Assembly (NCBI GenBank): GCA_024330185.1
Contig: JANDLV010000010.1
Location: forward strand, 1 to 64,000
Reading direction: 5' to 3'
Origin: Candidatus Siliceabacter maunaloa
GTDB taxonomy: Bacteria > Actinomycetota > Thermoleophilia > Solirubrobacterales > Solirubrobacteraceae
DNA: 64,000 bases
The notes below the pieces were generated by a model. That model was given only the letters and a program-made list of their open reading frames with translations. It had not been told where the DNA came from and did not search any database. A program made the position numbers and the translations under genes. Shown piece after piece: positions 4,426 to 56,496 of the stretch. Each line of letters opens with the position of its first letter. The first letter of the stretch is position 1.

Positions 4426-5010
4426 ATGTCCCCACTTGTCCCCATGGTGGTCGAGCAGACGTCGCGCGGCGAGCGCGCGTTCGACATCTACTCGCGCCTG
4501 CTCAACGAGCGCATCGTCTTCCTGGGCACCCCGGTCGACGACCAGGTCGCCAACCTGATCGTCGCCCAGCTCCTGCACCTGGAGTCCGAGGACCCCGACA
4601 AGGACATCTCGATCTACATCAACTCGCCGGGCGGGTCGGTCTACGCGGGCCTGGCCATCTACGACACGATGCAGTTCATCAAGCCCGACGTGTCGACGAT
4701 CTGCGTCGGCATCGCGATGTCCATGGGCGCACTGCTGCTGGGCGGCGGCGCGAAGGGCAAGCGCATGGCGCTGCCCAACGCCAAGATCCTCATCCACCAG
4801 GTCAGCTCCGGCTTCCAGGGCCAGGCGACCGACATCGAGATCCACGCGCGCGAGGTGATCACCCTGCGAGACCGTCTCGACGAGATCATCGCCCAGCACA
4901 CGGGCAAGCCCGTCGAGGACGTCAAGAAGGACACCGAGCGCGACTACTTCATGTCGAGCCCCGAAGCGGTGGAGTACGGCATAATCGACCGGGTCATCAC
5001 CGAGCACTAG
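4426..5010 (+). CDS. clpP: ATP-dependent Clp protease proteolytic subunit
   Basis: A 194-residue ClpP, the tetradecameric serine peptidase that degrades proteins unfolded by ClpX. The catalytic triad can be read as Ser99 (in GIAMSMGA), His124 (ILIHQ) and Asp173 (TERD). The oxyanion/handle region [17 protein letters not shown] is intact. The start ATG is close to the family start ([21 protein letters not shown]), with essentially no propeptide. It lies 67 bp after tig and 38 bp before clpX, consistent with one operon. Only one clpP copy is seen here, although actinobacteria often have more. Confidence 0.97.
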
Positions 5011-53087: not shown

Positions 53088-53261
53088 CTAGGCGGTCTGG
53101 GGCTCGCCGTCGGCGTCGCGCTTCTCGCCGCCACAGCCACAGGCGTCGCCGCTGCGCGTGGGGTCGGCGCAGCCGCAGCTGCACTCCCCGGCGTCGGTGG
53201 TCGTCGGGTCGGTGGTCTCGGTGGTCTCGGTGGTGGTGTTGCAGCCACACTGACAGGCCAT
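53088..53261 (-). CDS. Nested in-frame Cys-rich 57-aa protein (metallothionein-like), alternative start
   Basis: An ATG inside the merR frame, preceded by AAGGAAG 8 bases upstream, would give a free 57-residue Cys-rich peptide starting MACQCGCN with three Cys-x-Cys clusters and a Thr-rich spacer. The good ribosome-binding site inside the frame is what suggests a separate product; otherwise it is simply the C-terminal domain. Metal binding is inferred from Cys spacing. Confidence 0.45.
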   Translation of the reverse strand: MACQCGCNTTTETTETTDPTTTDAGECSCGCADPTRSGDACGCGGEKRDADGEPQTA

Positions 53262-53702
53262 GCTCGTCACTTCCTTCGTCTTGGTTTCGGGGACTGGAGC
53301 GTCGTTCAGGCAGCCGCAGAAGGCCCCGTGGTCGCTGCAACCGCAGCTACTGCCCCGGCCGGCCTGGTAGGCGGTCAGCCGCCCGCGGAAGGCGTGCAGA
53401 TCAGCGATCCGCTCGTCGACCTGGGCGACCTTGTCGGCCAGCAGGCGCTCCAGCTCGGGGACGAGCTCGTCGCAGCAGCCGCTCTGCGCGGCGGCGATGA
53501 GCTCGCGGATCTCATCCAGCGAGAAGCCGATCCGCTTGGCCTGGCGCACGAAGTGCAGCCGGCCCTCGTCCTCGGGCCCGTAGAGGCGGTATCCGGCCTC
53601 GCTGCGCTTCTGCGGGGAGACCAGGCCGATGCGGTCGTAGTAGCGCACGGTGCGGCTCGGAAGCTCCACCCGCTGTGCCACCTGCTTGACTGTGTGCTCC
53701 AT
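53088..53702 (-). CDS. MerR-family regulator with metallothionein-like Cys-rich tail
   Basis: A 204-residue protein. Residues 1-70 form a MerR winged HTH (EHTVKQVAQRVELPSRTVRYYDRIGLVSP). A dimer helix carries Cys76/Cys77 (SGCC) and ends near residue 112. The next segment has Cys120, Cys122, His125, Cys129 and Cys131 (CGCSDHGAFCGC). Residues 148-204 add further Cys-x-Cys clusters (CQCGC, CSCGC, CGCGG) in a Thr/Asp-rich linker. Metal sensing (Zn, Cd or Pb type) with a built-in chelating tail is inferred. An internal start at 53261 may yield the tail alone. Confidence 0.8.
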   Translation of the reverse strand: MEHTVKQVAQRVELPSRTVRYYDRIGLVSPQKRSEAGYRLYGPEDEGRLHFVRQAKRIGFSLDEIRELIAAAQSGCCDELVPELERLLADKVAQVDERIADLHAFRGRLTAYQAGRGSSCGCSDHGAFCGCLNDAPVPETKTKEVTSMACQCGCNTTTETTETTDPTTTDAGECSCGCADPTRSGDACGCGGEKRDADGEPQTA

Positions 53703-53710
53703 GCACCTAC

Positions 53711-53740
53711 CGTAGATCTGCCACTCGCGTGTCAGGTCAA
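53711..53740 (-). promoter_or_regulatory. Probable merR promoter
   Basis: On the minus strand TTGACC (53740-53735) and TCTACG (53716-53711) are separated by 18 bp, just upstream of the merR ATG at 53702. An over-long spacer is typical for MerR-regulated promoters. The -10 is weak and no clean operator dyad is certain. Confidence 0.4.
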
Positions 53741-53905: not shown

Positions 53906-55306
53906 ATGGACGCGATCGTCGTGGGCGCCGGGCCCAACGGGCTGGCGGCGGCGATCGCGCTCGCGCGCGCGGGGCGTCGCGTGACGGTCCACGAGGGGGC
54001 CGCCGAGGTCGGCGGGGGCTGTCGCTCCGAGGAGCTGACGCTCCCCGGCTTCGTGCACGACACCTGCTCGACGGTGCACGCGCTGGCCGCGATGTCCCCG
54101 TTCCTGCGCGCGCTCCCGCTGGCCGGGCACGGCCTCGAGCTCGTCCACCCCGACGCCCCGCTGGCCCACCCGCTCGACGACGGGACGGCGGTGATGCTGG
54201 AGCGCTCGGTGGAGCGCACGGCGCGCGGCCTGGGACCCGACGCGGACGCCTACCGCCGGCTGTTCGAGCCGCTGGTGCGCGACGCCGAGCCGCTCGTGCG
54301 CCAGATCCTCGGCCCGCTGCGTCCCCCGCGCCACCCGCTGATCCTTGGCCGCTTCGGCCTGGACGCGATCCGCTGCGCCTCCGGCCTCGCCCGGTCGCGC
54401 TTCACGGGGGAGCGGGCGCGCGGGCTGCTGGCGGGCTGCTGTGCCCACTCGGTGCTGTCGCTGCGCGCCCCGGTCAGTGCCGCGTTCGGCATGGTGCTCG
54501 CCCTGGCCGCCCATCACGCCGGCTGGCCGGTGGCCCGCGGGGGCTCCCAGCGGCTGGCCGACGCGCTGGCCGCCCATCTGCGCGCGCTGGGCGGGGAGAT
54601 CGAGACGGGTCGGCCGGTCGCCTCGCTGGACGAGCTGCCCCGCGCAGGCGCCACCCTGCTCGACGTCACGCCGCGTCAACTGCTGGCGCTGGCCGGGGAC
54701 CGGCTCCCCGCCGGCTACCGGCGGCGCCTGGCACGCTACCGCTACGGGCCGGGCGTGTTCAAGCTCGACTGGGCGCTGCGCGGCCCGATCCCCTGGGCCG
54801 CGCCCGAGGTCGCCCGCGCCGGAACGGTGCACCTCGGCGGCTCGCTGGAGGAGATCGAGGCCTCCGAGGAGGCCGCGGCCCGCGGCGAGCACGCCGACCG
54901 GCCCTACGTGCTGCTCGTGCAGCCCACCCTCTTCGACGCCTCGCGGGCGCCCGAGGGCATGCACACCGCCTGGGCCTACTGCCACGTCCCCCACGGCTCC
55001 ACGCGCGACATGACCACCACGATCGAGGCCCAGGTGGAGCGCTTCGCCCCCGGCTTCACGGGCCTGATCGCGGGCCGCCACGCCATGGACTGCGCCGAGG
55101 TCGAGCGTCGCAACCCCAACTACGTCGGCGGCGACATCAACGGCGGCGTCCAGGACCTGCGCCAGCTCTTCGCGCGCCCGGTGGCGCGCCCCGTCCCCTA
55201 CGCCACGCCCGAGCCCGGCCTGTTCCTGTGCTCCTCCTCCACACCGCCGGGCGGTGGGGTGCACGGCATGTGCGGGTACTGGGCCGCCCGCGCGGCCCTG
55301 CGCTGA
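53906..55306 (+). CDS. FAD-dependent oxidoreductase (phytoene desaturase-like)
   Basis: A 466-residue NAD(P)/FAD-binding protein. The Rossmann motif VVGAGPNGLAAAIALARAG is at about residues 5-23, followed by VHEGAAEVGGGCRSEELTLPGF and a C-terminal FLCSSSTPPGGGVHGMCG (FAD-binding end). The architecture is that of the CrtI/NAD(P)-binding amine oxidase superfamily. No carotenoid genes are near, so the substrate is unknown. The ATG at 53906 directly precedes the fold; ATG 53888 would add six residues. Confidence 0.82.
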   Translation: MDAIVVGAGPNGLAAAIALARAGRRVTVHEGAAEVGGGCRSEELTLPGFVHDTCSTVHALAAMSPFLRALPLAGHGLELVHPDAPLAHPLDDGTAVMLERSVERTARGLGPDADAYRRLFEPLVRDAEPLVRQILGPLRPPRHPLILGRFGLDAIRCASGLARSRFTGERARGLLAGCCAHSVLSLRAPVSAAFGMVLALAAHHAGWPVARGGSQRLADALAAHLRALGGEIETGRPVASLDELPRAGATLLDVTPRQLLALAGDRLPAGYRRRLARYRYGPGVFKLDWALRGPIPWAAPEVARAGTVHLGGSLEEIEASEEAAARGEHADRPYVLLVQPTLFDASRAPEGMHTAWAYCHVPHGSTRDMTTTIEAQVERFAPGFTGLIAGRHAMDCAEVERRNPNYVGGDINGGVQDLRQLFARPVARPVPYATPEPGLFLCSSSTPPGGGVHGMCGYWAARAALR

Positions 55307-55350: not shown

Positions 55351-56496
55351 GTGCTCCGTCTCGGTTTTAGTTGGTGATTGCGTTGAGGGCGACGCGGCCG
55401 CGGCGGACCTTGGCGAGGATCTGGTCGGCGGTCGCGGTCCACACGAACGGCTTGGGGTCCTCGTTGGTCACGGCGAGGTAGGCGTCGATCGCGGCGATGA
55501 GGTCGGGCACCGACTGGAAGATGGCGCGGCGGGTGGCCTTGTCCTCGAGCTTGCCAAAGAACCGCTCGACCATGTTCAGCCACGAGCTCGAGGTCGGGAT
55601 GAAGTGCAGGTCAAAGCGCGGGTGCTTGGTCAGCCACTTCTTGACGTTGGCGTGCTTGTGGGTGGTGTAGTTGTCCAAGATCAGGTGGATCTGCAGGCCC
55701 GCGGGGACTTCGCGATCGATGACCCGCAGGAACTTCAGGAACTCCTCGTGGCGGTGGCGGGCCATGCACCGGCCGATCACCTCGCCGGTCAGGACGTCCA
55801 GCGCGGCGAACAGCGTCGTGGTGCCGTTGCGCTTGTAGTCGTGGGTCATCGTGCCCGCGCGACCCTTCTTCATCGGCAGCGACGCCTGGGTGCGATCCAA
55901 GGCTTGGATCTGGGACTTCTCGTCCATGCACAGCACGACGGCCTGCGCGGGCGGGTTGAGATACAGGCCCACGACGTCGACGAGCTTCTCCTCGAAGTGC
56001 TTGTCGTTTGACAGCTTGAACGTCGTGACGCGGTGGGGCTGCAGATTGCGCGCGGACCAGATCCGCTGGACCGTGGCGGGACTGACGCCCTGCGCGGCGG
56101 CCATCGAGCGACAGCTCCAGTGCGTCTCGCCCTCGGGCTTGTCCTCAAGCGTCGCGCGGACGATCTCAGCGACCTTCTCCTGGCTGATCGCAGGCTTGCG
56201 CCCACGGCCGGGACGCACGCCGCCCAGACCCCTCAGGCCCTCCACCGCGAAGCGCTCACGCCACGCCTTGACCGTCGCCGGCGAGACCCCGGCGGTCGCG
56301 GCGATCTGCGTGTTCGCCTCGCCGTCGGCGGCCATCAGCAGCACCCGCGCGCGCTGCACTTCACGGTGGGCTGCCGTCCGGGAACGCGCGAGCTTGTCAA
56401 GCACCTCCCGCTGGCTGAAAGCGATCGGTAACGGCGACGTGGCGAGGCGCATACAGCACCCTACCACAAAAGCCAGCTATTTACGAGACACTACAC
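55351..56496 (-). mobile_element. IS630-family insertion sequence
   Basis: A 1146-bp element flanked by TA dinucleotides (55349-55350 and 56497-56498), the expected IS630/Tc1-mariner target duplication. Imperfect terminal inverted repeats read inward as GTGCTCCGTCTCGGTTTTAG (left) and GTGTAGTGTCTCGTAAATAG (right), sharing GTCTCG and TAG. One transposase fills it. The right end lies 11 bp before a broken Uma2-like gene. Confidence 0.88.
55367..56467 (-). CDS. IS630-family DDE transposase
   Basis: A 366-residue transposase. N-terminal HTH domains (ANTQIAATAGVSPATVKAWRERF and a second at VSPATVQRIW) are followed by a DDE catalytic core: LCMDEKSQIQALD (first Asp), HLILDNYTTHKHANVKKW (second Asp), and SSSWLNMVERFFGKLED (Glu). 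All three acidic residues are present, so the element may be active. The ATG at 56467 or the next in-frame MRLATS start is plausible. It sits wholly inside the 55351-56496 element. Confidence 0.9.
   Translation of the reverse strand: MVGCCMRLATSPLPIAFSQREVLDKLARSRTAAHREVQRARVLLMAADGEANTQIAATAGVSPATVKAWRERFAVEGLRGLGGVRPGRGRKPAISQEKVAEIVRATLEDKPEGETHWSCRSMAAAQGVSPATVQRIWSARNLQPHRVTTFKLSNDKHFEEKLVDVVGLYLNPPAQAVVLCMDEKSQIQALDRTQASLPMKKGRAGTMTHDYKRNGTTTLFAALDVLTGEVIGRCMARHRHEEFLKFLRVIDREVPAGLQIHLILDNYTTHKHANVKKWLTKHPRFDLHFIPTSSSWLNMVERFFGKLEDKATRRAIFQSVPDLIAAIDAYLAVTNEDPKPFVWTATADQILAKVRRGRVALNAITN

What the first reader, a model, noticed from the sequence alone, without database searches (positions are those of the whole stretch)
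53088..53702. MerR regulator carrying a nested, separately startable metallothionein-like tail
The reading frame continues from a MerR domain into several Cys-x-Cys clusters. At 53261 an ATG with AAGGAAG 8 bases upstream sits in the same frame, so one gene could give both a sensor-chelator fusion and a free 57-residue metal-binding peptide. That would be an unusual self-contained metal-response circuit, or a recent stop-codon loss between two genes.
Basis: partly seen in the sequence, partly recalled or inferred. Interest (0 to 1): 0.6.

Follow-up and report, generated by a model that had tools for sequence, protein, structure and literature searches.

The report
Metal sensor fused to nested chelator
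A bacterial metal-sensing gene and a small cysteine-rich metal-binding gene that are normally two overlapping genes have run together in one reading frame here, but the second gene's own start signal is still in place, so one stretch of DNA probably makes both a sensor with a tail and the free metal-binding peptide.

Summary
ORF 53088-53702(-), 204 aa, is a complete MerR metal sensor (residues 1-~133) running into a Cys-rich, metallothionein-like (MT-like) tail. A nested ATG (53261) sits 8 nt after AAGGAAG. Twenty close relatives explain it. Of 17 with an MT-like ORF directly 3' of merR, 13 have two separate genes (stop/start overlapping by up to 8 nt, or ~35 nt apart), including one in the same genus. 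Four are fused in frame: the window, a second Solirubrobacteraceae MAG, Pseudonocardia nigra and Arthrobacter sp. H14. Fusion needs four changes on the tree, three forced by well-supported branches. All four fused genes keep Shine-Dalgarno plus ATG at the MT start. The MT also occurs as a stand-alone gene, once behind the same operator. A near-invariant MerR-type promoter precedes merR; its -10 lies 6-8 nt from the start codon, so merR is probably leaderless while the MT is SD-led. Across 399 class genomes this operator occurs only in genomes with this merR. Best reading: an autoregulated sensor-chelator bicistron whose frames merged by drift here, probably still yielding free peptide. The fusion itself needs no selection. 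Translation and metal binding are untested. MerR control of an MT-like protein has a precedent (CadR-Zrd).

The parts
53088..53702 (-). Fused ORF, 204 aa: MerR sensor plus MT-like tail
   Evidence: AlphaFold2 model: MerR fold 1-115 confident, 142-204 pLDDT below 50
53304..53702 (-). MerR sensor domain, residues 1-133, with Cys metal site C77, C120/C122, C129/C131
   Evidence: Pfam; C77 aligns with ZntR C79 and MerR C82 where CueR has none, C129 aligns with ZntR C124 and MerR C126
53262..53303 (-). Linker, residues 134-147: the translated equivalent of the relatives' intergenic or overlap region
   Evidence: Not conserved in length or sequence; carries the merR stop codon in 13 relatives
53270..53276 (-). 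Internal Shine-Dalgarno AAGGAAG, 8 nt before the nested ATG
   Evidence: motif kept in all four fused genes
53088..53261 (-). Nested ORF: 57-aa MT-like peptide MACQCGCNTTTE...
   Evidence: Homologous to separate genes in relatives and to stand-alone genes
53713..53740 (-). MerR-type operator/promoter: -35 TTGACC (53740-53735), 20-bp spacer with imperfect dyad TGACAC-GCGA-GTGGCA
   Evidence: Same architecture in 19 of 20 homologs; only site in the genome at up to 3 mismatches
53709..53714 (-). -10 element TACGGT, 6 nt before the merR start codon: predicted leaderless merR transcript
   Evidence: TANNNT 6-8 nt from the start codon in 19 of 20 homologs

Best explanation
It is an autoregulated metal-response bicistron, merR plus a small MT-like chelator gene, whose two reading frames have merged in this lineage. 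A soft, probably divalent metal ion (Zn/Cd/Pb/Hg type) binds the MerR dimer through C77 and the C-terminal Cys loop. MerR then activates the one promoter it sits on, which has an over-long 20-bp spacer with a dyad. The mRNA begins at or next to the merR start codon, so the sensor is translated leaderless. The chelator is translated from its own Shine-Dalgarno site inside the mRNA. In most relatives the chelator start overlaps or closely follows the merR stop. Here and in three other lineages an indel in the unconstrained linker put both in one frame without a stop, so full-length ribosomes make a sensor with a disordered chelating tail while internal initiation still makes the free 57-aa peptide. 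Free peptide lowers metal and shuts the circuit down. Shown: architecture, homology, recurrent fusion, SD/ATG retention, operator specificity. Inferred: metal identity, leaderless transcription, internal initiation, chelation, feedback.
For: Separate-gene relatives, one in the same genus with ATGA overlap. Fusion needs four changes, at least three forced. SD core plus ATG kept in four of four fused genes against 10% of internal ATGs. Near-invariant operator and promoter in 19 of 20. Operator unique to merR in the own genome and found in 8 of 399 class genomes, all with this merR. In G080 an extra operator sits before a stand-alone MT gene with its own SD. MT-profile hits in the family fall in exactly the 10 genomes that have the merR. 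Metal-site Cys pattern like ZntR/MerR, not CueR. Tail predicted disordered, MerR fold complete.
Against: No expression, proteomic or metal-binding data. The MT-like peptides match no known MT family. Their Cys content varies (4 to 12) and a few are degenerate, so strong chelation is not assured for all. Leaderless translation is inferred from -10 spacing only, and a weak SD-like AGGTG overlaps the window's -10. The MT profile was built from these same peptides, so its hits there are by construction; only its silence elsewhere is informative.
Confidence: 0.72

Rival explanations
1. Only the full-length fusion is made. The internal SD/ATG is a relic, and the MT tail works as an on-board metal buffer that raises the sensor's threshold or desensitises it.
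For: The frame is open in four lineages, and in one of them (Pseudonocardia nigra) the tail also keeps its C-terminal helix. In-frame ATGs with an SD of this strength are 12.6% of internal ATGs in this genome.
Against: All four fused genes keep SD and ATG. Linkers are not conserved. The frame-phase distribution looks random. The free peptide is a gene in its own right in 13 relatives and two stand-alone loci.
Confidence: 0.15
2. The fusion is a sequencing or assembly error: a single-base indel in the linker of a draft genome, with the true arrangement two overlapping genes.
For: The window's ATG lies at +45 nt after the CGCL motif, against +41 and +44 (phase 2) in its nearest tree neighbours G090 and G392, so one base separates fused from separate. 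The genome is a draft of 120 contigs.
Against: Three other fused cases exist, two in assemblies not labelled MAG (P. nigra DSM 104088, Arthrobacter sp. H14). The linker holds no long homopolymer run.
Confidence: 0.07
3. The small Cys-rich product is not a bulk chelator but a metal-delivery or co-regulator peptide that loads or unloads MerR, which would make physical linkage useful.
For: It is tightly tied to this MerR and operator. Many members carry a C-terminal helix LDxRxxxLE suited to protein contact, and some have only 4 Cys.
Against: Stand-alone copies sit away from merR. The window's peptide lacks the helix and has 8 Cys. No efflux pump or enzyme is a conserved neighbour that would need a chaperone.
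Confidence: 0.15

Closest known systems
CadR-Zrd, Pseudomonas aeruginosa (PMC12301328)
   Same: A MerR-family Cd/Zn sensor activates a small Cys-rich, metallothionein-like protein through a MerR-type operator (paper read).
   Different: Zrd is a zinc-ribbon protein at a distant locus. cadR is not autoregulated and also controls the exporter cadA. Here the sensor and the chelator share one promoter and one mRNA, the operator has no exporter target, and the genes can be fused.
SmtB-SmtA and AzuR-NmtA (cyanobacterial metallothionein loci)
   Same: Compact sensor plus metallothionein circuit (own knowledge; PMC7387436 passages; PMC8790569 abstract).
   Different: SmtB and AzuR are ArsR-type repressors; smtB is transcribed divergently from smtA. 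Here a MerR-type regulator is predicted, on the same mRNA.
ZntR / CueR / MerR (Tn501) metal sensors
   Same: DNA-binding fold, 19-20-bp spacer dyad, Cys metal site.
   Different: 30-34% identity; below every NCBIfam equivalog cut-off. CGC...CGC loop and a few residues longer after C77.
Overlapping or coupled gene pairs that are fused in some genomes (GeneTack survey, PMC3711429)
   Same: Adjacent coupled genes appear as one fused ORF in other genomes.
   Different: Here the start of the downstream gene is kept inside the fused frame, in several lineages.

Membership tests
MerR family metal-responsive activator | N-terminal winged-helix MerR DNA-binding domain and long dimerisation helix | tested here: met
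   Pfam MerR_1 and MerR-DNA-bind above curated cut-offs; helices H5-12, H16-24, H43-58, H62-74, H77-115 in the model
MerR family metal-responsive activator | Target promoter with 19-20-bp spacer and dyad between -35 and -10 | tested here: met
   20-bp (16 loci) or 19-bp (3 loci) spacer in 19 of 20 homologs
MerR family metal-responsive activator | Cys ligands at the dimer-helix start and C-terminal loop (divalent-metal type) | tested here: met
   C77 and C129 align with ZntR C79/C124 and MerR C82/C126
MerR family metal-responsive activator | Metal-dependent activation | not testable with these tools
   needs reporter or in vitro transcription
ZntR / CueR / CadR-PbrR / MerR equivalogs | Score above the NCBIfam curated cut-off | tested here: not met
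   best is NF007069 (Zn(2+)-responsive regulator) 90.2 bits against 143
Bacterial metallothionein (as described in Pfam/NCBIfam) | Match to a curated metallothionein family | tested here: not met
   no metallothionein-family match for eight members at E up to 10
Bacterial metallothionein (as a functional class) | Small, Cys-rich with CxC motifs, no aromatic residues | tested here: met
   57 aa, 8 Cys, five CxC, no F/W/Y/H
Bacterial metallothionein (as a functional class) | Binds metal ions in clusters | not testable with these tools
   needs purified peptide
Gene with internal in-frame translation start | SD and start codon at the homologous position in relatives | tested here: met
   four of four fused genes; same position is the gene start in 13 separate relatives
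Gene with internal in-frame translation start | Two protein products | not testable with these tools
   needs ribosome profiling, N-terminomics or a tagged blot

The most novel reading that the evidence does not exclude
One metal-induced mRNA uses two translation modes in one reading frame: a leaderless start for a tailed sensor and an internal Shine-Dalgarno start for excess free chelator. This fixes the sensor-to-chelator ratio and gives built-in feedback, and the tail lets the sensor buffer its own signal. The arrangement has been reached independently several times in Actinomycetota.
Probability: 0.3. Interest if true: 0.65.

Novelty: new variant of a known kind. Interest (0 to 1): 0.46.

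Why it matters
It shows a compact metal-response module with sensor, promoter and chelator in under 700 bp and no exporter target, spread over Solirubrobacterales and, sporadically, other Actinomycetota, with a Cys-rich peptide family that the curated libraries searched do not hold. The recurrent merging of two overlapping genes into one frame, with the downstream start kept, is a natural set of replicates for asking when gene fusion is neutral and when it changes function. The predicted leaderless sensor beside an SD-led effector gives a testable rule for setting protein ratios on one mRNA.

Tried and rejected
Curated MT families in Pfam and NCBIfam: no match. Mobile source: no match on 72,556 plasmids at E<=1e-20; viral contigs gave only distant MerR relatives, at most 44% identity. 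Conserved neighbours such as pumps: none shared by most loci. Literature on MerR-metallothionein fusions: none found in the held library; CadR-Zrd is the nearest. A 'selected fusion' reading was set aside because frame phases are 7:3:7 (p=0.39). One Pfam scan of the divergent neighbour used the wrong frame (53908 instead of 53906), so its empty result means nothing.

Full report
What is there. The minus-strand ORF 53702-53088 encodes 204 residues. Residues 4-111 match the Pfam MerR domains well above cut-off. NCBIfam places it among ZntR/CueR/MerR-type metal sensors, but below every equivalog cut-off, the best being 90 bits against 143. From M148 the frame carries 57 residues with 8 Cys, five CxC motifs and no aromatic or His residues. 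No other place in about 150 kb of the same genome, read in six frames, has four or more CxC in 57 residues. The nested ATG (53261) follows AAGGAAG (53276-53270) by 8 nt. Taken alone the SD is weak evidence: 12.6% of internal ATGs in long ORFs of this genome have one as strong, and 10% have an SD core at correct spacing.

Relatives resolve it. Searches of relatives, class, family, phylum and neighbouring families and of named genomes gave 20 MerR homologs at 60% identity or more, counting one of two tandem copies in G080. Reading the DNA 3' of each shows 17 with an MT-like ORF directly behind merR. In 13 it is a separate gene: the MT ATG overlaps the merR stop (TGATG, ATGA, or up to 8 nt) or follows within about 35 nt, with an SD. 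One of these, G001 (L035), is in the window's own genus and has an ATGA overlap. In four the two are in one frame without a stop: the window, L036/L057 (Solirubrobacteraceae MAG AVDCRST_MAG53), L044 (Pseudonocardia nigra DSM 104088) and L054 (Arthrobacter sp. H14, cut by the contig end). Three homologs, including a paralog in the window's own genome (G000:C39, L031), have no MT next to them.

History of the fusion. On a tree of the MerR cores the fused state needs four changes, and well-supported branches force at least three. The phases of MT starts relative to merR are 7:3:7 for the three frames, not different from equal (p=0.39). So fusion is what drift of the linker frame would give, and it has happened repeatedly. 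The linkers have no shared sequence; they are largely the translated Shine-Dalgarno region. All four fused genes keep an SD core at proper spacing before the homologous ATG, where background is 10%, about 1e-4 if treated as independent. This retention is the main sequence evidence that the internal start is still used.

The free peptide is a gene in its own right. Besides the 13 separate cases, G080 carries a stand-alone copy (L145 and L162, G080:C8) with its own SD directly behind a copy of the merR operator, and G402 has another stand-alone copy without the operator. In the 146 genomes of the family the MT profile hits exactly the ten genomes that have the merR. Positive hits are by construction of the profile, so the informative part is the silence in the other 136. 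The profile misses the shortest members (G080 and G798 beside merR). The peptides share MACQCGC-like starts, a CGCGC middle and often a C-terminal helix, and match no curated family.

Promoter and translation. Nineteen of 20 homologs have TTGAC, a 20-bp (16) or 19-bp (3) spacer with the dyad TGACAC-N4-GTGTCA or a variant of it, and a TANNNT -10 only 6-8 nt before the merR start codon. Long spacers with dyads are the hallmark of MerR-activated promoters (own knowledge). A TANNNT -10 centred 7-12 bp upstream of the transcription start, with frequent leaderless mRNAs, is documented in Mycobacterium tuberculosis (PMC3898074). The merR message is therefore predicted to be leaderless, while the MT start has an SD. 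In the own genome the operator occurs once at up to 3 mismatches. In 399 genomes of the class it occurs at up to 2 mismatches in 8 genomes, all carrying this merR; every site is in front of merR except the G080 stand-alone MT site, and reversed-pattern controls were zero. No efflux gene is a shared neighbour. The recognisable regulon is thus merR and its MT.

Metal site and structure. This favours a divalent soft metal over Cu(I), as inference. An AlphaFold2 model gives a confident MerR fold to residue ~115 and pLDDT below 50 for 142-196 and 199-204, so the tail should not disturb the sensor.

Mechanism. Metal binds MerR, which activates its own promoter; the leaderless start gives sensor and the internal SD gives chelator; the chelator lowers metal and the circuit relaxes. 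In the window some product is sensor with a chelating tail. Architecture and history are shown; metal, leaderless start, internal initiation and chelation are inferred.

What is known. CadR of P. aeruginosa activates a Cys-rich MT-like protein, Zrd, but not itself (PMC12301328). SmtB-SmtA and AzuR-NmtA are ArsR-type counterparts (PMC7387436; PMC8790569 abstract). Overlapping genes that are fused in other genomes are documented in general (PMC3711429). No paper on a MerR-MT bicistron or fusion was found in the held library, which is not a full literature search. I rate it a new variant of a known kind.

Noticed in passing
L145:1501-1757 (G080:C8:709382 onward): Stand-alone MT-like gene (TTG start, SD, ~40-nt leader) directly behind a copy of the merR operator, away from merR.
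   Followed up: yes
L159, minus strand from about 1683 (G402:C264:2238-2420): Second stand-alone MT-like gene with SD but no recognisable MerR operator.
   Followed up: partly
L050, about 4440-4650 (G402): Adjacent MT in which the CGC repeats have become a long (GS)n run, as if by slippage; possibly a chelator losing function.
   Followed up: no
L038, 3433-3834 and 8952-9353 (G080:C1): Near-identical merR-MT units 5.5 kb apart: a tandem duplication that seems to include a large neighbouring gene.
   Followed up: no
L031:4304-4705 (G000:C39:21303-21701): MerR paralog in the window's own genome, 63% identical, with no operator dyad and no MT beside it.
   Followed up: partly
window 55367-56467 (-): DDE_3 (IS630-like) transposase ORF close to the locus.
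   Followed up: no
window 53906-55306 (+): Divergent neighbour beginning MDAIVVGAGPNGLAAA, looks like an FAD-dependent phytoene desaturase-like oxidoreductase by eye; not tested in the right frame.
   Followed up: no
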